Source: Echinarachnius parma (taxonomy: Eukaryota; Echinodermata; Echinoidea; Clypeasteroida; Echinarachniidae). From it: a DNA stretch of 64,000 nt. Numbering within the stretch: the first letter of the stretch is position 1; every line of letters starts with the position of its first letter. Below, in pieces: positions 5,617 to 38,574 of this stretch. Location of the stretch: positions 62,001-126,000 of the forward strand of contig JBAMJV010003268.1 in NCBI GenBank assembly GCA_037951105.1, in the 5' to 3' direction. A program made the position numbers and the translations under genes. The notes under the pieces were generated by a model. The model had not been told where the DNA came from. It did no database searches and worked only from the letters and a program-made list of their open reading frames with translations.

Positions 5617-7478
5617 TTACCTGCTTCCCTCCAGTGACCTCCCTGTCGAATCACTCTCAGAGTTGGGCCGATTATCCGTCCTGGACGATGACCTCCCTCC
5701 CTCGTCTTCCCTACTTCCTGGACTGTGACGCCTGCTTCTTGAACCTTGACTAGACCTTTGAGATTCCTGACTAGTCCTCTGCGAGCTCTGGCTGGACTCA
5801 AGCTGGGATGTTTCCGTGTCAACTGTCTCCATACTGAAATCCTGCACATCTGGAGAGTCATCTTTGCTGTCGTCATGGCTACTAACATTGTCACCAGAGT
5901 CATGAACATAACTTTCGTCTACCTCGTCCCTTTCGCTTTCCCACCCCTCATCATCATCATCAGGATCTCCAGGTGCCCATGTCTTATCGCTCTCACTGGA
6001 CGGAACGCTTCCGAGAGAAGTCAAGAACTGTTCATACACTTCCGGACTGGGACTGCTGTCCGAGTCGTGCGAGTTTAAGCTCAAGGAAAACTCGTCACTT
6101 ATGGTTATGTCTGTCGAACCCTCTTGTGACGCTCTTTCCCAAGAGGGATCTGCGCTAGAATCTGATTCCTCGTCTAGTGGAATCCCGTATAAATATTCCT
6201 GCTTTCTTTTCTTCCCTCTGGATTCTTGAGAGGCATCTCTACTTGCCGACGGCTCTCTTGCTTCAGAAGATGCAGCCCGGTCGCTAGATGAATGCGGGTC
6301 ATCAGCTCTCCTTGCTAAGTCAACAATAGTGACAGTTGTTTGATCATTGCTCGGCTCCAGTTTCCTATTTGAATTCCTGGAAGTTTTCCTGTTACCTCTA
6401 GAGGTATTGTCATTTTGGCCCCTCCCTCTCTTCTTGCGTTTGCTTTGTCTGGATCCAGAGTCATCCCGTGGTTCATGCTCCAGTGTATCAGCTCGCTCTC
6501 GGTTGCGCCCACGATAGTTTCTGAGTCTTCTTCCGGCGCGCTCACTTCCTGCAGAACCTCCTCCAGTCCTCCTGCTCCCCTCTTCAGCCTCACTATGATC
6601 CGATATATCGACCAACTCCTGAGCATGTGGTGAGCTCCTACCACTGCTGTTATATTCAACAGACATGCTTCCGAAGGAAGCAGCTCCATGGGGAGAAAGT
6701 CTTCCCCCACCCGATGTCTTTGGTTGGTTTCCCCTGCTAGGGTTCTCTGCACTGGAGCTCTGGGGTCCACTTTGGGAAAGATGGGATGAACGTTGCCCAA
6801 CATCATTTCCATCGGGAGAGTTGCTTTGGGGAGAGCTCCCTGATGGCATGTGAAAGATGTCATCACTAGAGTCTCCACTTTGGCTGTGCACCCTCTCCAC
6901 ACGGTCTGAACTGGGACTGGTCGGGCTCACCTCATACACCTGCACGGGTTCCGCTTCCCCATCACTGCTGTCTAGCAGAGAATCATTAAGGTCACCATCT
7001 GAGTCATTACTGGAGTTTAAATAATCATCATTGAGGAAATCGCTATCAGAGTCCCTCTCCTCTACCTCCTCTTCTACCACATCCTCTTCTGCATCCCCGT
7101 CGTCTCCATTCTCCTGGGGACTCGTCTCATCAGAGTTGGTGTCTCTGGGCGCTTCAAAGTAATCCCCATCCTGCTCCTCAGGGTACTCTGGTGTGCTGAT
7201 CACCTCATCCTCATCTCCGGAGTAGTAGAACGAGTTGTCCTCATCACTGTGCAAGTGATTGGTGATGTAGTCGACGACTTGGGCGATGTCTGCATCCCGC
7301 TCCTCTGAGTTGGCGTATTCCGGAGTGGCGTACTCTGTGGAGTGGTTAGACCCCCAGCTGTTCTGATCCTGGTGGCAGTTCTCCTCCATGGACTTCAACC
7401 GGTCCTCCAGGGCCTGGATCTTGGTGGACAGCTTGGTCTCCAGGTCACGCAGCCGCTGCTGATACTGGTCCTCCATAG
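5617..7478 (-). CDS. RNF151-like exon 3 (coiled coil plus acidic Ser-rich region)
   Basis: The acceptor is TTTTCAG just above 7478. The exon begins with a phase-1 codon (Ala) followed by MEDQYQQRLRDLETK, a heptad-like helix. The rest is low complexity with repeated S/D/E/R clusters and no globular signature. Its length comes from one open frame of about 1.86 kb, which is long for this GC content and supports real coding. Confidence 0.75.
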
Positions 7479-9674
7479 CTGAAAATACAAATATAAAACA
7501 TAATTTTATCAATTGCTACTCAAAGCTCAAATATGGTAGTGACCCTGTGGGCCAATACCCGCTAGAAATGCTGTTGGGCCACCTGAAATTGACAGATAGG
7601 TGGCCCGACTGGCCAGTAGAAATTAAATCATGAAGATCACAATCATGAGGTTGAATAAATTCAAATAGTTTCCTGCTTTTTGGCCAGTTGAAGACTGCAG
7701 CAATATTTCATTTCATTTCAGTTTATTCAACCATAAAAAAACAAATAATACAATGTACTATAAAATGAACTTGATGAGAACTGAATGTTTTTGTTTCCAT
7801 ACCTGCCATGCTTTTCTTGAGCTCAGCAAGACAGTTGTGCTCCTGGCCTTCTCCATGGGGATGGGCAGGCCGCATCCCTTCTTGCACATGATGAGTCATT
7901 ACCTATAGACCCCAAAGAACTTCTGTATGTATGTTTACTAAAATAAACTTGAAACAGAAAAAAATATATTGTTTCCATACCTGCCATGCTCTTCTTGAGT
8001 TCTGCAAGACAGTTGTGCTTCCTGGCCTGCTCCATGGGGATGGGCAGGCCACATCCCTTCTTGCACATGATAAGGCGATACTTGCAGCTCTGCTCATGCA
8101 CAAGCATGTTCTGTCGCAGCACCGTGCTCCCACACCCCGTGTTCAGGCACTTGATCATCGCAAAGTCGCAGTTCTGGGCGTGGCTGTCGTACATTTCGAG
8201 CTTGATGCCCTCGACGCATCCGTGCTCGCGGTTCTCGCACACGATCAGCAGCCGGTTGATCATGTTGCGGACGATCGGGAGGACGGGCTTGAGCTTGGAG
8301 ACGCGGACGCGCTTCCGGCAGTTGGGGCAGCTGCTGCGGTTGGTCAGCCATGTCTCAATGCACACCTGAAGGATTCATGAATTTATACAAACAAACAAAA
8401 TCTATTCAACAGAGAATACATCAGCATTTCAATTTGTATAAAATGCACGGAAAACATGTGAACATATAATATGGTTAATTTTCATTAATTTGATTTTATT
8501 TCAGTTACAATAGCTGCTGCAGTTGGTAAGATATGAGTGTTTATAAGTAAAGAGAAACTAAATTAGACCATCTCTGAAATCCTACTTTCTCAACATACAT
8601 TTTTACTAGCCCAGGACAATTGGGCAAGTGCTAGTGTCGAGCACTGCAGTAGCCATATAAATATTTGCAGGATTCAAATGGCTAAGGGGTAACATAATTG
8701 TTGGTAACACTACAACCTTTTGCGTGGAATTGTCTACATGTTTATTTTCATTGACTCCTTGAGTGCCAAGCTCGCATTTTTGCGAGTTACAATACACACA
8801 AATGCCATAGAGCATTAAAATTCCTGGCACGTTAAGAGTTAAACCATACCTTGCAAAAAAACATGACGACAGGGGCTCTCCAGCGGGTTGTCCCGCACTT
8901 GTCAGTAAGGCTGTTGATGAGTCACGGGTTCCCGGGTCCCGCGGAAAAATGTCGAGTCCCGGGCGCAAAAATCGATACTCGATATCCCGCAAAAATCGAT
9001 ACCCCGAAAAAAAGCAAAAGTCCCCTTTTTGAACGCCCGAGTTATCTGCCCACGCTCATTTTCTTTTCTTTCCTTTTTCCTTCTTTGAACGCCCGAGTTA
9101 TCTGCCCACTCCCATTTTCTTTTCTGTCCTTTTTGTGTTCATGCACTCTGTAATAATATGCTAGTTATCATTCAGTTCATTATAAACTCATGAGATGCAA
9201 TGTATTAAACCATGTTTTCCCAGCGGCGTGACATGCCGATAGCGAAATCAACAAAAAATGGGTAAAATTCGGCTACCCTCGCCCGAAAAATTATTGCGAG
9301 TCCCGGGAGGGAAATACTCCCGAAATCGACACCACTACTTGTCAGCGCACTGACAGATACAGCAGATGAGGTCCTAATGATGTCCTCAGATGAGAGGGTC
9401 TCAAAGCAATCAACGTCATACTTTGCCATGACGAATATTTTGCCAATATGGAAAATTATACCATATCTATGCATCTCTTATCTTGCCAACATGCAACTTC
9501 TAAAAAACTTATTACATTAATGCTTAGCGTAGGGATAAGTTCAGTGAACAATACCTTGCAGAATACATGACGACAGGGGCTCTCCAACGGGTTGTCCAGG
9601 ACGCACTGACATATACAGCAGATGAGGTCCTCATCCGGAGGCGTCTCAAAGCGATCAACGTCATACTTTGCCAT
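5617..9674 (-). CDS. RNF151/NRDP1-like RING and TRAF-type zinc-finger protein with long acidic Ser-rich tail
   Basis: Three minus-strand exons, 9674-9555, 8365-7981 and 7478-5617, join in phase (0, then 1) to give 788 residues. Residues 19-56 form a C3HC4 RING: C19-x2-C22, C34-x-H36, C39-x2-C42, C53-x2-C56. The start (MAKYDVDRF) and the layout match RNF151 and NRDP1/RNF41. Exon 2 carries Cys/His pairs typical of TRAF-type zinc fingers. Exon 3 opens with about 35 residues of coiled coil, then about 580 residues rich in Ser, Asp, Glu and Arg. By family, this is a probable E3 ubiquitin ligase; the substrate is unknown. Vertebrate RNF151 is only about 240 residues, so the tail is unusual. The TAA stop overlaps a good splice donor, so more exons are possible. 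Confidence 0.8.
7804..7886 (-). pseudogene. partial copy of the 3' end of RNF151-like exon 2
   Basis: The stretch repeats the last ~80 bases of exon 2 (reverse strand of 7981-8065), including the ATGGGGATGGGCAGGCC block and the donor context ACCTGCCATGC. A few changes and a 1-bp deletion are present. It lies in the intron between exons 2 and 3 and lacks the rest of the exon, so I call it a relic. Confidence 0.8.
7981..8365 (-). CDS. RNF151-like exon 2 (second half of RING, TRAF-type zinc fingers)
   Basis: The acceptor CTTCAG precedes GTGTGCATTGAG (V-C-I-E), which supplies the fourth to sixth RING cysteine ligands. The exon ends GCAG|GTATGG in phase 1. It is much more GC-rich than its surroundings, as expected for an exon. 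Confidence 0.85.
8846..9440 (-). pseudogene. decayed copy of RNF151-like exon 1, split by a hAT-type MITE
   Basis: 8846-8905 and 9338-9440 together match exon 1 (9555-9674), including the initiator region MAKYDVD and the CRHVFCK-coding part. Small indels break the frame after about 15 residues. The break between the halves is an element with an 8-bp duplicated target. Confidence 0.85.
8906..9337. mobile_element. hAT-type MITE with 8-bp target duplication
   Basis: The element is flanked by CTTGTCAG at 8898-8905 and 9338-9345. Its ends TAAGGCTG and CACCACTA are imperfect inverted repeats. The right terminus read in reverse (TAGTGGTGTCGATTTCGGG) matches the left terminus of the element at 60403-60705. 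An 8-bp duplication and TA-x-x-G ends are typical of hAT elements. Confidence 0.85.
9555..9674 (-). CDS. RNF151-like exon 1 (initiator and first half of RING)
   Basis: ATG at 9674 starts a 40-codon exon ending TGCAAG|GTATTG in phase 0. The protein begins MAKYDVDRFETPPDEDLICC, very close to the family start of Y-D-V, then R-F, then D-E-D-L-I-C. Confidence 0.85.
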
Positions 9675-10371
9675 GATGGATATTATGCCAACTATCTTGA
9701 TGTGCAGTGGACTCTACGAGTACATGATCATTGTCTGTAAGAAAAGAGAAGCAAACATTATGTTAAACCTATTGCCTATGGGAACCGGGTGGGCCCTCCT
9801 TATCGGGATGGATGGATATTTTGCATGATGGATATTTTGCCGACTATCTAGAATCTAGCTGTGCAGTAGCCCATATCAGTAAATGACCACAATCTACATG
9901 TGTTGACACACGCAGTACCCCGGGGTACCGTTGTACCCCGGTATCCCGCATTGCGTAGCGCCATCTTGTGTCCACCCGAAGTACAACCGTACTGCAGAGC
10001 AATCATGTACGCCGCTGGTGTATTGCGTTGTGCATGCAGCGCTTGTATGCACGCTACCCCGGCCGCAAAGAGAGCATTTTGAACGTAAATAAAGCATAAC
10101 GAAAATAATTTTACACTCTTTGGTACCCCAGTGTACAGCCCTGAAAAATAAATAAATAATTAAACAAAATGGCAGATTTTCATTTGGTACCCCAGGGTAC
10201 CATTCATGTCATGTGAGAAAAGTAGAGTGAAATTCTGTTAATTATGTGGAACCCGGTGGTCCCCTGATCATCATCAGGAGGCCGAGTGGTCTTAGACTAG
10301 AGTAAACAATGTCAACGTCATACTTTGCCAAGACGGATATTTTGCGAACTATTTGGAATCTAGATGTGCAG
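9675..10371. repeat. upstream region with further fragments of the exon 1 neighbourhood
   Basis: The phrase GATATTTTGC with flanking GAATCTAG and GTGCAGTAGCCC recurs near 9815-9885 and 10318-10370. The latter also keeps TCAACGTCATACTTTGCC, the start-codon region of exon 1. So the 5' part of the RNF151-like gene has been duplicated repeatedly. The promoter and any 5' non-coding exon probably lie here but cannot be pinned. GGTACC-rich patches occur at 9915-9945 and 10185-10205. Confidence 0.55.
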
Positions 10372-27700: not shown

Positions 27701-30700
27701 TGTTAAAGTAATGGGGTAGCGTTTAAAAGGATACTTCATAAAAAGGGTAGAATTTGACCAAACATTTCTGATACTGTAAAGAAAGTTTTCACCTTGTGTT
27801 TAATGGGTAAAAATGCTCTGCAAAAGCCTTCCAAATTAAGTGGAGACAACTAGTACTTTATTCTAGACAGAATATTCACAACTAATTGTACTTTGCATAA
27901 TTATTCCTCACCTTCCTATTTTAACAATGATGAGTTTACAGAAGACCAAGTCATCGTGCAGGAATGCAGTGGACGAGAAATATCAACCCACGACGGTCTC
28001 ATCTCCGAAATATGACATGACATGCATAAATCTTTACTTGAGTTGCTTTAAATAATTTTTAATGTAAAAAAATGTATAATTATTTTCACCCCTTTCTCCC
28101 TTTTTTTTTTGCTGATGATTTTGCAGAGGACCAAGCCGCAAGGCGCCGTGCAGGAATGCAGTGGACCGAGAAGTACCAACCCACCGCGGCCTCGCAGATG
28201 ATTGGCAACACAGCGGTCTGCAGGAAGTTCAACTCCTGGCTGACCGACTGGAAGAAAAAGGCCCAGAGGATGAAAGAGAAGACCATCAGGGGACAGAGAA
28301 AGCAAAAGAAATCTAAAGGTAAGGGGATCTTTTGATTCTCAATGTTTAGGGTCATGAATAAATGATACGGTAATAGAAATGTCACAGAGAATTATCAACC
28401 AACGGCTGCCTCCCAGATGATTGGCAACACAGCGGTCTGCAGGAAGTTCAACTCCTGGCTCACCGATTGGAAGAAAAAGGCCCAGAGGATGAAAGAAAAG
28501 ACCATCAGGGGACAGAGGAAGCAAAAGAAATCTAAAGGTAAAGGGAATTTCTTTTCATTAATTTACCATGACCAAGTAAAACCAAGTAATATGATGGCCA
28601 AACCCCAGAATTGGGCGGCACTGAACTTTAAAAAAAAAAAAACTTTTAAAGAGGTGCATTATTTTTTGTTGCCAAGAAAAAGTACAATTTGGCAATTTTT
28701 GTCCCATATCTCATTGGTGGGATATTGCTTATTTTGAGCCCTGCTTGTATTGCAAGTTCCACTCTTAGCTTGAAGATTGGAAGAAAAAGACCAAGAAAAG
28801 GATAAACAACAAGCATAAAAGCGAAATGGGTGTTTATCGTTTCCTTTCATTAACTTTCATTTCTGAAGCTTGGACGCATAGATATACAAACAATTATCAA
28901 TTAGTCTTTTTATGGATTGTTACATTTTTTTGTATATAAGGAGCAAATGTGAACAATAGCCAACCAGAGTTTGAAAGGAACTCCGGAGGGCCAATCAATG
29001 GTTCACTGCAACTCAAGTACCAAAGAAAAAATTATCTAATTAAACAAAAAAAATTTAAAAAGGGAACACATTTTGAGGTGAACAGGACCCCTAAAAGAAA
29101 AAATTATAATTATTATACATTAGAAAGGAGGTAAACATGCACACGGCTTTTGAAGTCTTGGAGACCAGTAATTGAGATATTTCCAACAACCGAGTCAGGG
29201 AGACTATTCCAGATCCGCACTGCCGAGTGAATGAAACTCCTGTCCAAGGATGAGGTTTTAGCATCTGGGAGTGCAAGAGCATGGTCCGGCATGGATGCAC
29301 TAAGCCGGGTCATCCGCCGTCTTTCCCAGGAGGGAGGGAGCATGTCTCCTAGGTCTTTTGGGCAGTGTTGAGAGTGCATTTTGTACAGCACTGACAATGC
29401 AGCTACCTGGCGTCTATGTGCTAAGCTGGGGATTGAGAGTTTGGTGCGAGCAGTGGTGTCATCAACTCCTATGATCTTAAGTGCCTTCTTTTGGACGTTG
29501 TCAAGCAAGCTAAGAGTTGATGGGGAAGCATTTGTCCAGCAGAGGGATGCATATTCCATGACGCTACGGACCTGTGCTTTGTAGACTGTGGCTCTTCCTT
29601 TACAATCAAGTTTGTTTGCCACTTTTCTCAGGGCACCAAGCTTCTGTCCCGCTCTGGTGGTAATTGCTAAGATGTGTTTAGACCAAGTAAGTTTGGAATC
29701 GAAAGTGACACCTAGAATTTCGAGCTCATGCTTTGCTGCTAGCTGGCAGTCTCTTAGATACAGGTTCAGTTCTGAAGGAGATCGCTTTCTTGAGAATGTC
29801 ATGACTTTACATTTTGATGGTTCAAATGTAACCTTCCATGTGTCTGCCCATGATTTCATCCTGGTCAGGTCTCGGTTTAGGCTGGCTGCAACATCCTCGC
29901 TAGCTTGTGGTGAAGGGATTGGGCATAAAGTGTCGAGTCGTCAGCATACAGGTATAGCTCATTTTCGCAGACATCTACCAAATCATCAATATAGACAGAG
30001 AATAGAAGTGGTCCAAGTATCGACCCTTGGGGGACAGAAGCGTTGATGGAGGAAACTTCCGATGCTTGGCCTGACAGTACAACTTTTAATGACCTATCAG
30101 ATAGGTAGCTCCGCAGCCAGGTTGATAGCTTAGGGTCAACCTTTATTCATGTGTGAGTACAATTATGTGTTTTCATTCCTAATAGCCTGGTCACATATCA
30201 ACGGATTGCGCAAACGTATGTCAAACGGAGAGCTAAATTTTTCATCCGTTCTATGCATTTCTTGTCCGTTCCTTGTCCGGTGATGTACGTTGTTCTATGT
30301 TTTGTACATGAAGCAATGGAGACGACTTTCATCACCGGATAATTTAATATCGCAAATTGTCTATTCGTTGGGCATACGTTCCCGCTATCCGTTGATATCT
30401 GACCGGGCCATTAGTCTTTAACCCCTTGACTACAGGAACCGAGTAGGTTGTGTACAAAGTCTATGGGGATTTCGGAAACTCAATGGGAACAGGTTAATTT
30501 GTCCATATTGTAATTGGCAATAAAGGGATATAAGAATTAAAAGACTAAACCGTTGAAAATTATCTTTGGTGCAGTGGCAAAGAAAGTTGACGGTGAGGAT
30601 GAAGACAGCGACGACGATTTCTTCTGCAGCGACGACGAGGATAGCGACGAGGAGGATGGACTCTGTAACACATGTCTGCTTGTCGGACCTCACGGAGTGG

Positions 30701-33700
30701 GGAAGACGGCCCTGGTCTATGCCTGTGCTCAGGAGCTTGGATTTGAGGTAGATATTTTAATAATCATGCTAATGAGATTTTTGTTAAACTTAGTATTAAA
30801 TGGTCATGTATAAATTGCAGCCGCGCAGAATAAGTTATATCTTTAGTACCTGAGGATGGGCTCTGTAACACAGTCCTGCAGGTCGGACCTCACGGAGTGG
30901 GGAAGACGGCCCTGGTCTATGCCTGCGCTCAAGAGCTTGGATTTGAGGTAAAGGCCTGACTGCTGATATTCACCCATCTACTGGTTGTTGGGAGAGGATT
31001 GGACATATTTGTAAATGCTTTATTTGTGAAAAAGGGTCATTTGCTTTTCTCTCTATAATATTTCTCATCTTAACTTTGAAAAAACTCTGACCTTGTCATA
31101 CAAAATACTTCAAAAGTGGTACCATTTGGCTTCTAGCCAGGCACTCGGCATTTACCACATTTACTAGAGGACTAGCCCCTTTCTGTAGCTTTCACTACTT
31201 ACAGGGGCTACAAAATATGTAGGAGATATGTGCTGCCTTATGAGCCAAATTGGCACGGGTAGGAATCTTACTAACTGTTCTTCATATCATCTGGCATGTA
31301 CAACATGTCACAAAATTAATTACAACGGGAATTTCTGCAACGATAACTTTAAAATAGTAGATCAATCAGAATGATATTTCAGGGTATGAAACTATAACTT
31401 ATTACCTACATCTTGCAGAAAACCCTATTCGATTTGCTTCAGTGGTCATGGAGAATGATTATCTTTTGTCAATCATGTCATGTGTCCATTTTTGTTCATA
31501 ACGCATGAACACAATGGACAACACGTCTCCTTACATTACAAAACCTGGAGGGAAGGGACATCTGACATGATTGACAAAAGATCCTCATTCTCTATGACCA
31601 CTGAAGCAAATCGAATAGGGTTTTCTGCAAGATGTAGGTAATAAGTTATAGTTTCATACCCTGAAATATCATTCTGCTTGATCTACTATCTTTAAAGTTA
31701 TCGTTGCAGAAAGTCCCGTTGTAATTAATTTTGGGACATGTTGTAGATGACCAAATCATACTCCTGTTTTCTTTGTTTTTTCACTTCTGTTTAGGTATTT
31801 GAGGTCAATCCATCATCGAAGCGTAGCGGTCGACAGATCCTGTCGGAGCTAGGGGAAGTCACCCAGTCCCATCAGGTTGCCAGGCAACCCGGCGTGTCGT
31901 CTGCAAACTTCTTTAAACCCTCGCCGACCAAGATGGCTGCCAAGAACGCCTCCCCGAAGAAGAAGAAGCCGGCCATTCCGAAGGCGTTTGCAGCCTTCTT
32001 CAAGGCCGGGGGTGCGGATAAGAAGGGGAGCAAAAGCCCCAAGCGATCCCCCGTGAAGAAGCCAAGGTATTTCATCCCAATACAGGGTGGCCCAAAAAAA
32101 AAACGAAACGGGCCACTTTCCAAAATATAGTAACAAAATGATTATTTCCATCGGATAGGGTATATTTTCCAATACAAAACGATACCAAGAACAGTAATTT
32201 TGGTCGTGTAGTTTTTGTTTTAGGGCGCTCTGAGTGACACCATGTCAGGTTCCCATTTTTGCCAATTTTTACCAAGTCAGTGCCTGATAAATCGCACTTA
32301 CTGCCCGTCATACCATTGAACACGCGAGTAATACGCGCGCTATTGTTAGTGTGCACTCAGCCGTGTGCCGAAAGAATGGGCATGGTTGTGCGATGGTATT
32401 ACAGGCAGGAAGTGCGATTTAACTGGCACTGACTTGGTAAAAATTGACAAAAATGGGCACCTGACATGGTGTCACTCACAGCGCCCTAAAACAAAAAGTA
32501 CACGACCAAAATTACTGTTCTTGGTATCGTTTTTCATTGGAAAAGACACCCTACCGATGGACATAATCATTTTGGGAAGTGCCCCGTTCCGTTTTTTGGG
32601 GGCCACCCTGTATACAATTTGGAATGCTAAATGTATCGTATCTGAGGGATGTTTCACAAAAGGTTTATGTCTAGCCATAAACCACAACAAATTCCTGGTA
32701 AGTGGCTGGTGTGCTCTGCTCTGCGAGTTGCCTTGCTGGAATGCTCCCTATGGAGTACAGAATATGCACTTTATGTGCTGCATTGATTGCAGTGTGTATC
32801 CTGTGACTGGGGTAATACAAACATTGCACCCCAGTGTCCTAAGATGGAAAGTGGGATATAATTTCTATCATTATTATTATATGAATCCTTCTTTTAGTTT
32901 TAAGTGTATGTATTTGTACTGCTGTTCTTATGCGTCTTTTTTCTAATCATTCATTTTTCAACTTTTTTTTCAAAAGGTCACCCAAGAAGCAGGCAAAGAA
33001 ACCTACCCAGGATGCATGTGGTAAACCTTCCCAGGGTGCATCAGGAAAACCCTTCGCTGGATTTCATGCCAATGCTGCAAGGAAGAGCGACAACAGTGCA
33101 CCGAAGATCACTTCCACATCGCTCATACTATTTGATGAGGTAGGTAGCAAACCTAAACAGTTAACGGGACTTAGTAACATTGTCCAAATCCTCAAAACCC
33201 AATTGAAATTCTAGCGGTTCCCTCATACCTTGTTGTATTCTTATCAACAACAAAAAGCATGGGACAGGTTTCAGTTTTTCAAATTTCCCTTTCGTTAAAA
33301 AGATATTTACGATTGAAGTGTTCAGATGTCAAATTATCCAACGGATCGTCAGAACCGTGTACAAAGTGAGTGCAATGAGTTGGTGAATGTCACTTTGCAT
33401 TTTTGCTCATTACTCGGCCATATAAAGTCCATTTAACTCGAAATTTTCACACAACACCTAGTGGACATATCAGATAACAATTATATATCTTGTATCAACC
33501 ACTCATCACTTTTTGCAAAGTTACTAGATCCCTCTAAAGGGAAACCAAAAGTGTTACTGATAAGTGCAAAATTCATGTCACTTCTTGCTGTTTATTTCAT
33601 CTTGGGTCTTTTACTAGTGATGGAAATAATCCATGATTTTTAGACCACTATCACCTGTTCTGACTGGCCACTGGAGGCTGCCATGTTTTCCAATGTTACC

Positions 33701-34284: not shown

Positions 34285-37200
34285 GGGAAAACATGTTTAA
34301 AAAACTGTTAGGGTTGACCATTTCTGTTAAACTTCTGCTTGTATCGAGATATAAAAGCTCACAATGTTTATCACACATATTTCATTATTGTCTGTATCTT
34401 TTAAACAATAAAACCTTTGACCTTTGTTTCCTGTTCAGGTGGATGTAGTGTTTGAGGAGGACAAAGGGTTTCTGGCAGCCATCATCTCGTTCATGGAGAC
34501 TACAAAGCGACCAATCGTACTGACAACAACAGGTAGATTGTGTTTTAAATTCTTGCAGCTAAATTTATCGAAAGAGTTCAAAAGCTTACTATAAGATTGT
34601 GATGTCCTGTGATGGCAAACTGCTGCCATTATAAAACATGATGTTCAAATAGGCATAATTGTATTTTGTCCAATTTTGATCAAATTTTCGCCAACTATTC
34701 CTCATATTTTTCCATTTTTTTGTAAGACAGTAACTAAATCCGGCCTAGTATTCTCCTTTGAAGTTTTCTTTGAGTAATTTTATTCTGTGCTAAATATGGC
34801 CAAATGTATTGAAGAGTTTGATGGAACTTCTTTGCATTTGATCATCTCAATTTTTAGAATAATTTAATTTGCCTGTTATTCAATTATTGCTTTAATATTT
34901 CCTTTTTCAGATCCGAGATTTGCCTACACTCTGCCCGGCAGGTTCGATGAGCTAGCCTTGAAACGGCCCCCACTGGTAAGTTAATGAAACCACTATCTCT
35001 GTACGTGTTATAGGGGATCATCTACATGTAGGTGTAAGATTGTGTATTTATGTCAGGGGTGTGAGAGCAAGATTGAAAAAAAAAAATCTGAAAAAATCTT
35101 AAATGAAAAGTGTGCGCGAAGTCCCTTACCTTAGGCCGGGGTTCAAGGCTCGATGCAGCCGTGTCACTCGGCGGTGTGCATGCTAGCGCTGCGGGTAGCA
35201 CAGGCGCGCGTTCGTTCAGGTGAAAGGCCACGCCGCAAGCTAAACAGAGCTCGCCGCTGAATGCACACTAAATACGAAATAAAAATGTCATCAAAATATG
35301 CTAAACCATTGAGTGCTAATACTCAAAATAATCGGAAATTAGAAATTAAAAATAAGCGGAAAATGAAGATTGCTGTTTGAGGTAAAAAGTCGGAATTCCG
35401 CGTAAAATCGGAGGTCTCACACCCCTGTTATGTGTTTGTTTGTTTGATTGTTTTATTAAAGGTGATTTGTATGTGTGTGTTACTTTTATTTTAAAAATTA
35501 CTTTGATATGATTCTGTTGACTCTGTCTTAAAACCTCATGATAGTGTTTTTTTTGTAAGCCCATTTTTGCTTGTAATCCAAGAATCACTAAAAGTATAAT
35601 TGTATTAATTTTGATTTGTTTAACTGTTTGATTGTACAATTGAATAACTTACTAAATGTTTCTTATTTTGAAGACACCCTTGACCAACCATCTACAGCTG
35701 ATCTGCCTTGCTGAGAACGTCCCCACCTGCCACCAAGGCGTGAAGCAGATCGTCCAACTTCTTGGCCGAGATGTCCGACGCTGTCTGCAGCACCTCCAGT
35801 TCTGGGCGCTCTCGGGCGCCATGCCAACACGAACACCTCTAGAACTGAATGCAAAGTGCGGATGCGCAATGAGTGGAGGTGAGGAGGACTCGCGAACGTG
35901 TACCTCGAATATGGATGATATGGACACCTCAGAACTCAAAAGTGAAGTAAACACTGCAGATGGAAAGACGCAGAAGGACGTTTGTTCTGGAAGCTCTTCT
36001 GTGAAAGTCTCAAATGACTTGAAAAACAGGACAGATAACGAAAGGACTATAAAGTGCGACTCTAGCGAAAAACGTGCCGCAGGACTTGTGCAGGAATCTG
36101 AAACAGGAGTTCGGGGGAAAGATGGGAAGTTGGTTACGACGGGCTCGTGTGCAATGCATCGTGGGATGTTTGAGAGCATTGTAGGACTCGGAAATATGGC
36201 AGGGCCTGTCATGGATGTACTGCATTTATTGAAGGTATTTTTGGGGGAAATTTGCAAATGGGATGTGCATGGAATTTATTGTTTGACATTATTGAATTTA
36301 GAAGCTCTCATTTGTCTACAAGATTAAACAGAACTATGATATGACAGTGCCAATTTCAATTTATTTATAGTTTCCTGTATACTAATACAAGGAAATTAAC
36401 ATTGAACATAAAAGAAAAAATTAACAAAATAAATAGTCTGTTTGTTCATTTGAACCTATCATGATTTTTATTCCAAGTGATAGAAAAAAATGCAGTTTTG
36501 ATTGAGAAATATATGTTTCCATGTTTATTACTTGCAAAATTTAATTCTAAATTGTATATCATTTCATTGTCGTAATATTTTGTTCTGCTTTTCCCTCACA
36601 GCATTTTGATACTCTAGGTATGGATTCAAGGACCAAAGGGCCGTTCTAGACGCCTTCCACAAGCTGGGATTGGACATTTCACATCACAACCTACCTCACC
36701 TCCTAAACCTATGCAAAGTACCCTCTATCAAACAAGATTCAGAGTCTAGCTCAGTCAGAGCGAAAAATGCTACAGAAGTATCAAGTAGCAAACAAGAATC
36801 AAATTCAGCGACATGTGAAGCTGAAAACGAACAAGAGAAAATGGAAACTTCAGAACAAGGGACAAAATCCGCCGCAAGTGAAGCGATAGAGAAGATGGCG
36901 TCGCGACTTGGCACAGACCTGATTCATGCACTAGCCGAACATACTGACACGATGTCCGCCCTCGATGTGCGACTGCCCCAAGGGCGACGACAGAGGGCGC
37001 TGCTGGGTCGCTATGGTAACCAGGAGTGGTGGCAGCCACTCTCGTTCCCGGGGCTCGACGACAGCGAAGACGATGTCGGCCCGGACTTCGAGTTTGTGGA
37101 CGTACGGCCATATGACGATCGCTGCGAGTTGGTTGTTGCAGAAGTTAATGGTGGGATGGAAGCTGCTAGTTTGACCAAGTGTTTGAGGAGTTGTAGAAAG

Positions 37201-38574
37201 ACTTTGGATGCAGCAAGAAAAAGCAGTCCTGATGATGTGAATTTCAGCGAGGTGTTGGAGCGCATTTTACCCCCCACCGGCGATGGATTGTTACGCTTGC
37301 AGCAGAGCGACCCTGGTACCAATATTAGGTGAGAATCTTTATTAAATTTTCCTTTATGATATTGTTATGGGGATTCAAGTGGTAATCTTACATGATAAAA
37401 TGAAACCTGTGTGTAGTGACCACATAAGAGAAACAAGAACAGTGACCACTGTAGACAGGTGACATCAATGACCTTTACAGACAGGTTCAAAAACATTGTT
37501 TTTCTTTGCTGAAATCACTTTCGGTGTGGAAAATGGCAGGTTGGCAGCTAAAGACAGGTATCTACTGAGAATGTTTGTATGTTATGAATTATTTATACAT
37601 ATTCTCATATATCTTCTTGTATTTGTCATACTCTCTTATTTGTATAGGGACACACATCGCTTAGTTGTGAGCAGGCTACCAGACAACCAGTAGTGCAACC
37701 ACCCCGCCCTGGCACTAGACTACTTCCCCACGCTCAGGGGCATATTTACAAACACAAACAGGCGCATCTCTACAAATAAGCTATTGCTTATAACCAATCA
37801 TGCTGAAATTCTCTTCAGATTTGTTGAGATTTGGATAATTCTCTTATGTATTTGATTTCTTATAGGGACCCACGTCATTTGATTGTTCGCAGGCTACCGG
37901 ATAACTAACAATATCTAATAACCAAACATTTTCCCATTTTCTTTGCTCTTTTTCAGTCATTTTTTTTTCAACCAAACATGTTTAAATGATGTGTTTTATT
38001 TTCAAATAAGACATAAAATATTGTTATTATTATCTTATAGGGACACGCATCGTACAGTCGTGAGCAGACTACCAGACAACCAGTACTGCAACCACCCCGC
38101 CCTGGCGCTTGACTACCTCCCCACCCTCAGGGGCATCTGCCGTTCAGAGGAACTTAGACGAGAAGCCAACCTCAAGAGAAGGTAAAGTTTTATTGAAAGG
38201 ATTGTGATATTTATGTATTTTAGGTCAAGATTTGTCTTGTTTACTCAGTGAAAATTATGATGTTGATACCTTGTAAGAGTTTTGTTTACAATGGAAGCTC
38301 TTATAAAGAGTTTTGCTTGTTGTAACAAGGCCTGATACAGATAAACCTCGTTATAATGAGTTCTGATATAATGGAAACTTGTTCAAATGAGGATCATTCA
38401 CAAGAAGGCGCCGGAACTACCTTTAAGAAAAATAATTCTATAAAACCTCTTTTTCTCCCACCTTTTTTCCACTGCAGATTCTTCCACTACCTGGATAGCA
38501 TCTCGTTATGCCTCAAACCAGCCACCTTCCTTACTCTGGCCAGTATGCTGAATAGAGACCACAGCCCTTTGTAG
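18490..38574 (+). CDS. ATAD5: ATAD5 (Elg1), large subunit of the PCNA-unloading RFC-like complex
   Basis: Eighteen coding exons: 18490-18537, 21416-23509, 23983-24100, 24767-24994, 25237-25539, 26335-26501, 26837-26999, 27200-27604, 28127-28318, 30575-30747, 31795-32066, 32977-33139, 34439-34532, 34911-34975, 35674-36234, 36602-37328, 38041-38181, 38478-38574. All junctions keep phase except at the start of exon 16. Total is about 2,000 codons; human ATAD5 has 1,844. Recognition: WTEKYQP block, Walker A GPHGVGKT, FEVN-SS-RSGRQ, Walker B LILFDEVD, sensor-like VLTTTDPRF, LQLICLAEN, and a C-terminus with YLPTLRGIC and KRRFFHY. By family it binds RFC2-5 and removes PCNA from replicated DNA in the nucleus. 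ATAD5, not RFC1: no BRCT domain, and the sequence follows ATAD5 throughout. Three exons have extra local copies. Confidence 0.92.
18618..19380. mobile_element. TA-flanked palindromic MITE (CCGTAAAACTCCG ends), probably nested
   Basis: Ends CCGTAAAACTCCGTGTATAA and its inverse are flanked by TA at 18616-18617 and 19381-19382. GTGTATAAGGCGCACCCC blocks and A/T runs lie near both ends. A second inverted pair (ACACCCTGTAGTCATGTT, about 18748 and 19235) lies inside and looks like a separate element. In ATAD5 intron 1. Confidence 0.75.
19493..21057 (+). mobile_element. non-autonomous Helitron (1.57 kb)
   Basis: The 5' end TCTATTATAATAATACGG starts right after an A. The 3' end has a perfect 8-bp-stem hairpin, CCCGCGGATTTCCGCGGG at 21031-21048, then TGCCG, then CTAG at 21054-21057, followed by T. 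5'-TC, a hairpin near CTRR-3' and insertion between A and T are the defining Helitron features. The interior is clearly CpG-rich (about 30 CG in the first 300 bases by eye) unlike its flanks, with a G-run at 20226-20250. I recognise no Rep/helicase. In ATAD5 intron 1, sense orientation. Confidence 0.75.
21416..23509 (+). CDS. ATAD5: ATAD5 exon 2 (long disordered N-terminal region)
   Basis: The acceptor CTTCACAG and the donor AAG|GTGAGA frame 698 codons rich in Lys, Glu and Ser. Near its start is SITSFFKP, then SDLRNYFQ, both resembling PCNA-binding FF/YF motifs but without the Gln of a canonical PIP box. An acidic stretch (22050-22100) and basic clusters follow. ATAD5 orthologues have a similar long, poorly conserved N-terminus carrying partner-binding motifs. 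Confidence 0.85.
23510..23982. other. ATAD5 intron 2
   Basis: AT-rich; no repeat or gene that I can define. Confidence 0.5.
23983..24994 (+). CDS. ATAD5: ATAD5 exons 3 and 4 (basic linker)
   Basis: Exon 3 (23983-24100) ends in phase 1 at AAAG|GTGATT. Exon 4 (24767-24994) starts after TTTTTAG and ends AAAAC|GTAAAT. Both encode Lys-rich sequence with no fold that I recognise; exon 4 ends with an SRRRSSSRLK segment. The intron between (24101-24766) is AT-rich with nothing recognised. The frame stays open past exon 3 to 24300, so retention would add about 65 residues before a stop. Confidence 0.75.
25237..25539 (+). CDS. ATAD5: ATAD5 exon 5
   Basis: Phase 1 in, phase 1 out. It contains KLAPIFTKQGQ followed by AAKKFRQDSLL and later FMPIPVVSHVLQK. 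The APIF-type motif before the AAA+ module is a recognisable ATAD5-like feature, though I rate it only as moderate evidence. Confidence 0.8.
25800..26250. mobile_element. nested MITEs in ATAD5 intron 5
   Basis: The inner element at about 25875-26181 has inverted ends GGGGTGTTTCACAAAGATCC and a near inverse. It shares its ends with 48643-48960. The outer sequence (CAGACCTGTAATA..., GTAGACAGGT..., ...TTGACTGTA) resembles other gene-flanking copies near 37400-37490 and 38590-38770. Confidence 0.65.
26335..26999 (+). CDS. ATAD5: ATAD5 exons 6 and 7
   Basis: Exon 6 (26335-26501, phase 1 to 0) encodes an ELNWNLPLPVFSKW segment. Exon 7 (26837-26999, phase 0 to 1) encodes GHPLLSEADRKNVIEDVL and ASRVFKLYQAKR. 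Both are non-repetitive and well framed by CAG acceptors and GTAA donors. They precede the AAA+ region. Confidence 0.8.
27200..27604 (+). CDS. ATAD5: ATAD5 exon 8 (charged linker)
   Basis: Phase 1 in and out. It is almost entirely Lys, Arg and Glu with runs of GAG codons, so it is a flexible charged linker. Its repetitive purine content makes it prone to length variation. Confidence 0.75.
27951..28014 (+). pseudogene. relic of ATAD5 exon 9
   Basis: Matches the first third of exon 9 (ACCAAG, then CGTGCAGGAATGCAGTGGAC, then GAGAAATATCAACCCAC) with indels. It sits about 180 bp upstream of the functional exon. Confidence 0.75.
28127..28318 (+). CDS. ATAD5: ATAD5 exon 9 (WTEKYQP block before the P-loop)
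   Basis: Phase 1 in and out. It encodes WTEKYQPTAASQMIGN and NSWLTDWKKKAQ, closely matching the segment that opens the ATAD5 AAA+ module. Being phase-symmetric, it could be skipped or duplicated without breaking the frame. Confidence 0.9.
28388..28537 (+). CDS. ATAD5: second, phase-compatible copy of ATAD5 exon 9 (possible alternative exon)
   Basis: It has its own acceptor (TCACAG) and donor (AAAG|GTAAAG), phase 1 in and out. It codes from ENYQPTAASQMIGN to KSK almost identically to exon 9 but lacks the WTEK start. Most changes are synonymous. It could be a mutually exclusive or extra exon; without RNA I cannot say that it is used. Confidence 0.5.
28741..28805 (+). pseudogene. second relic of ATAD5 exon 9
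   Basis: GCAAGTTCCACTCTTAGCTTGAAGATTGGAAGAAAAAG aligns with the AGGAAGTTCAACTCCTGGCTG part of exon 9. The copy carries a stop and no acceptor. Confidence 0.6.
29095..30150 (-). pseudogene. 5'-truncated non-LTR retrotransposon, reverse transcriptase C-terminal part
   Basis: The minus strand encodes a VPQGSILGPLLF motif, then YADDSTL (the catalytic YADD box), then a +1 shift near 29905, then an open frame from 29859 to 29113. That frame carries the thumb region typical of jockey/CR1-like pol (LEILGVTFDSKLTWSKH, IWNSLPDSVV). Upstream domains (fingers, endonuclease) are missing. An A/T-rich simple run lies beyond its 3' end. It lies antisense in ATAD5 intron 9. Confidence 0.85.
30180..30414. mobile_element. 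TIR MITE (CCTGGTCACATATC / GATATCTGACCGGGCC ends)
   Basis: Ends TAATAGCCTGGTCACATATC and the inverse of GATATCTGACCGGGCCATTA match over about 25 bp, including ATCAACGGAT. No coding. In ATAD5 intron 9. Confidence 0.7.
30575..30747 (+). CDS. ATAD5: ATAD5 exon 10 (acidic leader and Walker A)
   Basis: Acceptor GGTGCAG, phase 1 in, phase 0 out at GAG|GTAGAT. It encodes an acidic run of Asp/Glu, then LCNTCLLVGPHGVGKTALVY and ACAQELGFE. GPHGVGKT is the Walker A P-loop that binds ATP phosphate. Confidence 0.92.
30847..30947 (+). CDS. ATAD5: second intact copy of the ATAD5 Walker A exon (possible alternative exon)
   Basis: The acceptor ATCTTTAG precedes a 101-bp copy with phase 1 in and 0 out, exactly as exon 10, and the donor is GAG|GTAAAG. 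It encodes VPEDGLCNTVLQVGPHGVGK and the same ACAQELGFE end but lacks the acidic leader. The P-loop is intact. Exon 10 and this copy could be mutually exclusive; splicing both in series would break the frame. Confidence 0.5.
31090..31268 (+). mobile_element. 5'-truncated copy of the tRNA-derived SINE
   Basis: Matches the body of the SINE at 45853-46138 (TTCTAGCCAGGCACTC, CCTTTCTGTAGCTTTCA, CCTTATG, AAATTGGCACGG) but lacks the A and B boxes. In ATAD5 intron 10. Confidence 0.75.
31301..31743. mobile_element. TA-flanked palindromic MITE
   Basis: Ends CAACATGTCACAAAATTAAT and a near inverse are flanked by TA. Arms of about 190 bp are nearly identical over their length (for example GAAACTATAACTTATTACCT inverted near 31640), with a centre near 31515. 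In ATAD5 intron 10, just before exon 11. Confidence 0.8.
31795..32066 (+). CDS. ATAD5: ATAD5 exon 11
   Basis: The acceptor TGTTTAG precedes VFEVNPSSKRSGRQIL, the strand and helix following the P-loop in ATAD5. It continues with two FF motifs, SSANFFKPSP and FAAFFKAG, in a Lys-rich insertion. Phase 0 in, phase 2 out. Confidence 0.9.
32083..32610. mobile_element. TA-flanked palindromic MITE (CAGGGTGGCCC ends)
   Basis: Ends CAGGGTGGCCCAAAAAAA and an inverse at 32593-32610 are flanked by TA. The arms are inverted copies around about 32345. It sits only 16 bp downstream of ATAD5 exon 11. The long frames across it are not genes. Confidence 0.8.
32977..33139 (+). CDS. ATAD5: ATAD5 exon 12 (Walker B)
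   Basis: Phase 2 in, 0 out. A Lys/Gly-rich linker is followed by TSLILFDE, with the next exon supplying VD. DEVD forms the Walker B acidic pair of the AAA+ fold. Confidence 0.9.
33165..33533 (-). mobile_element. TTAA-type MITE, family B
   Basis: Inverted relative to the 2718 copy. TTAA at 33161-33164; the other flank has decayed to CTAA. It begins about 25 bp after the exon 12 donor of ATAD5. Confidence 0.75.
33537..33830. repeat. dispersed repeat, pair with 42340-42610
   Basis: AAGTGCA...GTCACTTCT, TTTTTAGACCAC, GGAGGCTGCCATGTT and GCACTAACAAAAG occur in the same order in both copies. No coding. Confidence 0.55.
33848..34283. mobile_element. G/C-run-ended element, sister of 13146-13852
   Basis: It starts with a G-run and CACTCATGTATAATGTAAGA and ends GTGACCC followed by a C-run of about 37. 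The ends match the 13146 element but the middle is different and not palindromic. In ATAD5 intron 12. Confidence 0.7.
34439..34975 (+). CDS. ATAD5: ATAD5 exons 13 and 14 (sensor region)
   Basis: Exon 13 (34439-34532) encodes VDVVFEEDKGFLAAIISF and TTKRPIVLTTT. Exon 14 (34911-34975) encodes DPRFAYTLPGRFDELALK. Phases 0-1 and 1-0. This follows the ATAD5 order of Walker B, helix and the sensor strand VILTT-DP. Confidence 0.9.
35054..35427. mobile_element. hAT-like MITE (CAGGGGTGTGAGA ends)
   Basis: Ends CAGGGGTGTGAGA and TCTCACACCCCTG are exact inverses, flanked by TTATGT on both sides. CAGGGGTG ends are common in hAT elements, though I can only confirm 6 bp of target duplication. In ATAD5 intron 14. 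Confidence 0.75.
35674..36234 (+). CDS. ATAD5: ATAD5 exon 15 (AAA+ lid and linker)
   Basis: Phase 0 in and out. It begins TPLTNHLQLICLAENVPTCH and QLLGRDVRRCLQHLQFW, the lid helices of the ATAD5 AAA+ module, then a polar linker ending at VLHLLK. Confidence 0.9.
36602..37328 (+). CDS. ATAD5: ATAD5 exon 16, with an apparent 1-base frame break near its start
   Basis: From about 36613 the frame reads RYGFKDQRAVLDAFHKLGLD and stays open to AATATTAG|GTGAGA (phase 2). The obvious acceptor CCTCACAG at 36601 enters in phase 0 and would hit a TAG at 36646. One base missing between the HFDTL codons and RYGF would explain this; an alternative acceptor (CTCTAG at 36617) does not fit the phase of exon 15 either. 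So this is an indel in the sequence, a real frameshift allele, or splicing that I have misread. The exon also carries an EDDVGPDFEFVDVRPYDDR acidic patch. Confidence 0.75.
37648..37745 (+). pseudogene. copy 1 of ATAD5 exon 17 with in-frame stop
   Basis: It keeps the TATAG acceptor and matching phase, and encodes RDTHRLVVSRLPDNQ followed by TAG in place of the Tyr codon. It then continues to match exon 17 for about 50 bases (CACCCCGCCCTGGCACTAGA). If spliced in, it would end the protein before the last conserved block. Confidence 0.8.
37867..37912 (+). pseudogene. copy 2 of ATAD5 exon 17 with in-frame stop
   Basis: It keeps the TTATAG acceptor and phase, and encodes RDPRHLIVRRLPDN then TAA. 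It is more diverged than copy 1 and matches only the first ~45 bases. Confidence 0.7.
38041..38181 (+). CDS. ATAD5: ATAD5 exon 17
   Basis: Phase 2 in and out. It encodes RDTHRTVVSRLPDNQYCNHP and LDYLPTLRGICRSEELRR, matching the conserved C-terminal YLPTLR-IC block. Confidence 0.92.
38478..38574 (+). CDS. ATAD5: ATAD5 exon 18 (C-terminus)
   Basis: After CACTGCAG it encodes FFHYLDSISLCLKPATFLTL and a short tail ending in TAG at 38572-38574. Human ATAD5 ends with a comparable KRRFLHY segment and a short tail. Confidence 0.92.

What the first reader, a model, noticed from the sequence alone, without database searches (positions are those of the whole stretch)
30575..30947. Two intact, phase-matched Walker A exons in ATAD5
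The P-loop exon of a core replication ATPase is present twice, 100 bp apart. Both copies have an acceptor, GPHGVGKT and a donor, and both run phase 1 to phase 0, so either, but not both, can be spliced. The second lacks the acidic leader and reads CNTVLQVGP instead of CNTCLLVGP. Mutually exclusive P-loop exons in a clamp unloader would be new to me.
Basis: partly seen in the sequence, partly recalled or inferred. Interest (0 to 1): 0.72.

Follow-up and report, generated by a model that had tools for sequence, protein, structure and literature searches.

The report
Duplicated ATAD5 exons, Walker A included
In this animal the gene for the DNA-clamp remover ATAD5 carries shortened second copies of several exons, one of them the ATP-binding exon; that copy is most likely a by-product of frequent small local duplications, although the copy of the exon before it looks as if it has been kept as working protein code.

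Summary
Exon B of an ATAD5 gene (B1, 30575-30747) is followed 99 nt later by a 5'-truncated copy (B2, 30847-30947) that keeps GPHGVGKT, the donor and the 1-to-0 phases. Searches of the 1.2 Gb assembly found no other match. By a recalled consensus B2's acceptor is chance-level. Substitutions in B cannot tell constraint from drift. Partial exon copies are frequent here: ATAD5 exon A (four places), a late exon (three), and two exons of a neighbouring zinc-finger gene, several broken. Local two-copy repeats occur about every 7.5 kb in 204 kb of the same genome. B2 is most likely an ordinary tandem-duplication fragment. The surprise is upstream: A2 (28388-28537) differs from A1 by 9 synonymous and 1 replaced codon of 49; constraint on both copies is favoured by 7.0 to 9.7 log units, although its acceptor is also weak. 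RNA evidence is needed for both. Alternative P-loop exons have a precedent, Daphnia Mhc1.

The parts
28127..28318 (+). ATAD5 exon A1, full length, 192 nt, phase 1 to 1: ...MQWTEKYQPTAASQMIGN...
   Evidence: Human ATAD5 1051-1102 match at 1e-11 to 2e-11; translation
28388..28537 (+). Exon A2, 5'-truncated copy, 150 nt, phase 1 to 1; lacks the MQWTEK part
   Evidence: 93% over 163 nt; 9 synonymous and 1 replaced codon (K to N, its first complete codon) of 49; acceptor score chance-level
27928..28000 (+). A0, decayed copy of the acceptor and 5' part of exon A
   Evidence: 76.5% with gaps of 7 and 1 nt
28754..28826 (+). A3, decayed copy of part of exon A, in-frame TAG and indels
30575..30747 (+). 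ATAD5 exon B1, acidic leader plus Walker A (GPHGVGKT), 173 nt, phase 1 to 0
30847..30947 (+). Exon B2, 5'-truncated copy with Walker A, CNTVLQVGP instead of CNTCLLVGP, 101 nt, phase 1 to 0
   Evidence: 92% over 99 nt; acceptor score -7.4 against 2.5 to 10.3 for eight other ATAD5 acceptors
31795..32066 (+). ATAD5 exon C, one match in the assembly
37648..37743 (+). H1, copy of the acceptor and 5' part of a late ATAD5 exon, with in-frame TAG
37866..37905 (+). H1b, a further short copy of the same exon start (seen by eye), with acceptor-like stretch and an early stop
38041..38182 (+). H2, open copy of the same exon; matches human ATAD5 1789-1819 of 1844
   Evidence: 0.0023, only ATAD5 chains matched

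Best explanation
B2 is a fragment left by a small local tandem duplication that began inside exon B and ended near or beyond its donor. It inherited the donor and the downstream phase, and met a phase-matched AG upstream by chance. It is probably not spliced, or only rarely, so ATAD5 is made from B1. The same process struck exon A, a late exon and a neighbouring gene. A2 is the exception: its code has been kept, so it may be a working alternative to A1 or was one until recently. Shown: the copies, their frames, the absence of other matches for exons A, B and C, the other fragments and the background rate. Inferred: absence of B2 splicing, and the cause of A2's conservation.
For: Order of pieces mostly fits tandem duplication: 3' parts follow the full exon (A2, A3, B2, 7761-7895), and 5' parts precede it (A0, H1, H1b). 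27 two-copy local pairs lie in 203.7 kb of 22 other stretches of the same genome, so local duplications of this size are common. One of them, in a stretch picked by contig number, again looks like an exon piece with its donor (L006 9512-9590 and 9698-9776). B2 acceptor is chance-level; a phase-matched AG is expected 66-67% of the time. B substitutions: 3 synonymous and 2 replaced codons of 32; equal-constraint and one-copy-neutral models differ by 0.08 log units. L to Q before the P-loop costs about 3.9 bits of the Pfam AAA score (32.1 against 36.0 for a hybrid with L; B1 35.4).
Against: A2's pattern (9 synonymous, 1 replaced of 49) shows that a partial copy in this very gene can be kept as code. 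B2's V (CNTV) matches human ATAD5 while B1's C does not, so each B copy carries one change from a residue like the human one and B2 is not the clearly faster one. B1's own acceptor is also poor by the same scale (-3.1), so that scale may undervalue acceptors here. The 100 nt after the B1 and B2 donors do not align (714 of 1000 shuffles as good), unlike what a plain tandem copy with intron should show, unless the copied unit ended at the donor or the intron was replaced. One fragment breaks the order rule: the 5' part at 9346-9446 lies after, not before, its full exon in gene direction.
Confidence: 0.6

Rival explanations
1. A1/A2 and B1/B2 are two consecutive pairs of mutually exclusive exons. 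Each transcript takes one of each, giving up to four ATAD5 proteins that differ in the start of the AAA+ domain, the acidic linker and the strand before the P-loop. Double use of B is removed by frameshift; double use of A may be prevented by the 69-nt intron.
For: Four isoforms open, B1+B2 frameshifts; A pair constrained on both copies (delta 9.65 on 48 codons; 7.0 on 50 codons); homology of both second copies begins within 5 nt of the phase-matched exon start, though random introns do as well in 37-38% of draws each; no second locus found; P-loop intact in both.
Against: Both second-copy acceptors chance-level; phase match not informative; the better-scoring AGs nearby give stops or the wrong phase; B shows no measurable constraint; many broken sister fragments.
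Confidence: 0.22
2. Assembly artefact: pieces of a second haplotype or false joins placed next to the first copy.
For: Several exons show the same kind of near repeat; no read or coverage data were available to check the joins.
Against: 33% of synonymous sites differ in A, more than I would expect of alleles (recalled); no match for exons A, B or C on any other contig (other ATAD5 exons not searched); no detectable similarity between the introns flanking the B copies; copies of exon A of very different identity (77-93%) lie side by side.
Confidence: 0.1
3. Poison exons: A2 or B2 is included through better-scoring nearby AGs (exon starts 28350, 30829), bringing early stops that lower ATAD5 level by nonsense-mediated decay.
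For: The AG before 28350 scores 2.7, within the range of the eight comparison acceptors; the one before 30829 scores -2.4, better than that of B2. Read on from a phase-1 G both meet a stop within three codons.
Against: Would not by itself preserve A2's reading frame; no expression data.
Confidence: 0.08

Closest known systems
Mutually exclusive exon 6 of Daphnia Mhc1 (muscle myosin), PMC2257972
   Same: A P-loop lies in alternative exons with identical P-loop sequence and differences beside it (passages seen)
   Different: Myosin, not a clamp unloader, in a gene with many such clusters. Here one copy is 5'-truncated, has a weak acceptor and no expression support
Unannotated tandem exon duplications in human, fly and worm genes (PMC9013439)
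   Same: Exon copies within the parent gene, some not annotated (abstract and results section seen)
   Different: That study had RNA reads to support expression; this case has none. Copies here are partial
Human ATAD5 / yeast Elg1 clamp unloader
   Same: Exons A, B, C match human ATAD5; the Walker A lysine is present in both copies. That lysine is needed for PCNA unloading by human ATAD5 and by yeast Elg1 (PMC6546911, passages); another yeast study found no phenotype when two Walker A lysines were changed to alanine but a null-like one when changed to aspartate (PMC9863317, passages)
   Different: No report of alternative Walker A exons found: no paper of the held library has both 'ATAD5' and 'mutually exclusive exons'

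Membership tests
ATAD5/Elg1 clamp unloader | Best match to ATAD5 among RFC-like large subunits over the AAA+ start | tested here: met
   8uii/8ui7 (ATAD5) 3.6e-28 and 5.5e-28; then Midasin 4.2e-06, RFC1 1e-4, CTF18 1.3e-4
ATAD5/Elg1 clamp unloader | Walker A GxxxxGKT | tested here: met
   GPHGVGKT in B1 and B2; Pfam AAA 35.4 and 32.1 bits
Mutually exclusive exons | Tandem homologous exons in one gene with equal phases | tested here: met
   A1/A2 phase 1-1, B1/B2 phase 1-0
Mutually exclusive exons | Inclusion of both is prevented or destroys the frame | tested here: inconclusive
   B1+B2 frameshift with stops; A1+A2 stays open
Mutually exclusive exons | Usable splice sites on both copies | tested here: inconclusive
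   Donors ordinary (3.2, 3.0); acceptors A2 -5.6, B2 -7.4 at chance level by a recalled approximate matrix
Mutually exclusive exons | Both copies under coding constraint | tested here: inconclusive
   Met for A (delta 9.65 on 48 codons; 7.0 on 50); no information for B (delta 0.08)
Mutually exclusive exons | Junction reads show one or the other in transcripts | not testable with these tools
   No RNA data
Non-functional tandem-duplication fragment (pseudo-exon) | Partial copy next to its source, truncated inside the exon, among others like it | tested here: met
   B2 lacks the counterpart of 77 nt at its 5' end; sister fragments and background rate
Non-functional tandem-duplication fragment (pseudo-exon) | Disabled reading frame or neutral substitution pattern | tested here: inconclusive
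   B2 is open; its pattern fits neutral and constrained models equally

The most novel reading that the evidence does not exclude
Two neighbouring mutually exclusive exon pairs let this animal build four ATAD5 proteins, swapping the edge of the AAA+ domain, the acidic linker and the strand leading into the P-loop, so that a core PCNA unloader comes in ATP-handling variants.
Probability: 0.17. Interest if true: 0.68.

Novelty: new member of a known kind. Interest (0 to 1): 0.33.

Why it matters
If B2 and A2 are spliced, a replication ATPase with one known locus here would be tuned by alternative exons at its nucleotide site, which would be a direct way to ask what ATP binding by the large subunit does in clamp unloading. 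If not, the locus is still a clear case of how a genome with frequent small tandem duplications produces exon fragments that look like alternative exons by phase alone, and of one fragment (A2) that has been kept as code.

Tried and rejected
Haplotype false duplication: rejected as main reading because no second locus was found for exons A, B and C and divergence is high. Phase match as evidence: rejected. Synonymous bias alone as proof of present function: treated with care, because two disabled copies also lean synonymous (H1 with a stop, 7 synonymous and 3 replaced codons, the stop among them, of 31; 7761-7895 with a 1-nt deletion, 4 and 1 of 29), with deltas of only 1.6 and 2.0. Intron homology after the A donors: 0 of 1000 shuffles as good in a global test, but an unrelated control pair reached 4 of 1000, and a local test gave 22 of 200, so only suggestive. 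Base rate of exon copies in other replication genes (MCM, DNA polymerase B families): not obtained, tool busy. Rfam scan of the window at gathering thresholds: nothing. Pfam on five window frames, the big ATAD5 N-terminal exon, exon C, 36610-37329, 5617-7515 and 29113-29940: nothing; 36610-37329 also has no solved-structure match, so its place in ATAD5 is by position only. Organism not identified.

Errors of my own: the phase column for B2 used reference 30853 instead of 30852; the correct phase of the 30847 start is 2 nt before a codon, as for B1. One search covered the wrong frame of exon B (its answer only told where the window lies); searches used the right frame. One search failed because a reference contained stops.
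Full report
Observation. A gene on the + strand matches human ATAD5: exons B+C at 3.6e-28, with Midasin (4.2e-06), RFC1 and CTF18 far behind, exon A at 1e-11, and a late exon at 0.0023 against the human residues 1789-1819 of 1844. The exon with the Walker A motif is present twice, B1 30575-30747 and B2 30847-30947; 99 nt in register are 92% identical. The exon before is present twice as well, A1 28127-28318 and A2 28388-28537, 93% over 163 nt. A genome search with exon B finds only B1 and B2. A search with A1+B1+C joined finds five places at E up to 0.1, all on this contig: A1, A2, B1, B2 and one C.

Frames. Joined from E7 to D, all four choices (A1 or A2, B1 or B2) are open; using B1 and B2 together shifts the frame and meets stops; A1+A2+B1 stays open. 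So exclusivity by frame holds for B only.

Is the matched phase telling? The donor is part of the copied block, so the downstream phase is inherited. For the upstream side I drew random 120-nt pieces from 11 non-exon stretches of this gene and placed them before the copied blocks: 66.7% (A) and 66.5% (B) offered a phase-1, stop-free AG within 100 nt, and 37.7% and 37.1% within 6 nt of the block edge (20,000 draws each). With an approximate consensus written from memory, eight other ATAD5 acceptors score 2.5 to 10.3 and A1 3.5, but B1 -3.1, A2 -5.6 and B2 -7.4; of 710 AGs between 23.6 and 34.4 kb, 46% score at least as well as A2, 57% at least as well as B2, and 28% at least as well as B1. Donors of A2 and B2 are ordinary. 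The eight comparison exons were bounded by eye from reading frames and consensus sites.

Substitutions. A2 has 49 complete codons; 9 differ from A1 synonymously and one, its first, by replacement (K to N). A codon likelihood with equal constraint on both copies beats a model with one copy neutral by 9.65 log units on the 48 codons after that one and by 7.0 on 50 codons that include it (best values, -241.46 against -248.45). B1 and B2 differ in 5 of 32 codons, 3 synonymous and 2 replaced (C to V, L to Q); the two models differ by 0.08. The V of B2, not the C of B1, matches human ATAD5, while the Q of B2 stands where human has I. The Pfam AAA profile gives 35.4 bits to B1+C, 32.1 to B2+C and 36.0 to a hybrid with V and L. 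Against human ATAD5 the 33-residue cores score 42.4 (B1) and 40.8 bits (B2) (the two queries also differ in their first residue). The models used equal codon frequencies and a fixed transition weight.

Setting. Exon A has two further, decayed pieces: A0 27928-28000 (76.5%, gaps) and A3 28754-28826 (TAG, indels). A late exon starts three times, at 37648, 37866 and 38041, each after an acceptor-like stretch; the first copy has an in-frame TAG and the second, seen by eye, an early stop. On the other strand a gene with a TRAF-type zinc finger (Pfam zf-TRAF 2.4e-07; the name RNF41/NRDP1-like and the RING are by eye and recall, and that the pieces belong to one gene is inferred) has partial copies of two exons, 7761-7895 of 7939-8074 with a 1-nt deletion, and 9346-9446 and 8842-8893 of 9547-9691 with indels. 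In 22 other stretches of the genome (203,679 bases, 20 picked by contig number and two flanks of the window) I counted 27 two-copy local repeats with 60-1000 nt spacing and E up to 1e-6; one (L006 9512-9590 and 9698-9776) again looks like an exon piece with its donor, with 4 synonymous and 7 replaced codons of 24. Pairs overlapping other pairs in those stretches were dropped from this count. Local duplications are thus common, and the order of most pieces (3' parts after, 5' parts before the full exon) is what small tandem duplications leave; the 5' piece at 9346-9446, which follows its full exon in gene direction, is an exception.

Reading. B2 is most simply one of these fragments, young enough to be open, with no sign of selection and a poor acceptor. 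A2 is different: its frame has been kept while a synonymous divergence of about 0.43 built up. The A pair is the only one of five tested (A, B, H, 7761-7895, L006) in which constraint on both copies is clearly preferred; the decayed pieces A0, A3 and H1b were not tested this way. Two disabled pairs lean the same way with small differences, so past rather than present function, or another cause of the synonymous excess, cannot be excluded for A2.

What the variants would do if made. A2 would drop the conserved MQWTEK stretch before the AAA+ core and B2 the acidic linker; both combinations keep the P-loop. In human cells the Walker A lysine of ATAD5 is needed for PCNA unloading and its mutation weakens RFC2-5 binding (PMC6546911, passages); for yeast Elg1-RFC, nucleotide binding, not hydrolysis, is reported to suffice for unloading (PMC10906927, passages). 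This is why a changed strand beside the P-loop would be of interest, but no step beyond sequence was tested here.

Known kinds. Daphnia Mhc1 has alternative exons that carry a P-loop with identical P-loop sequence (PMC2257972, passages), so alternative P-loop exons as such are known. No paper in the held library contains both 'ATAD5' and 'mutually exclusive exons'; of the 34 papers with 'ATAD5' and 'alternative splicing' the 12 listed do not suggest such exons by title and start of abstract. That is a statement about this library and these searches only.

Noticed in passing
28388-28537: A2, the copy of the exon before the Walker A exon, differs from A1 at 9 synonymous and only 1 replaced codon of 49; stronger evidence of a kept alternative exon than the pair that was reported.
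   Followed up: yes
37648-38182: A late ATAD5 exon starts three times in tandem, each after an acceptor-like stretch; the first two copies carry stops.
   Followed up: partly
7761-8074 and 8842-9691, minus strand: A zinc-finger gene (zf-TRAF by Pfam; RNF41-like by recall) carries partial, frame-broken copies of two of its exons.
   Followed up: partly
L006 9512-9590 and 9698-9776: A stretch of the genome picked by contig number shows a similar exon-like piece with donor, duplicated 186 nt downstream.
   Followed up: partly
29113-29940, minus strand: Reverse-transcriptase-like open frame of a non-LTR type element (by recall; no Pfam match) in the intron after exon A.
   Followed up: no
31295-31749 and 32134-32574: Two large inverted-repeat elements in the introns flanking exon C.
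   Followed up: no
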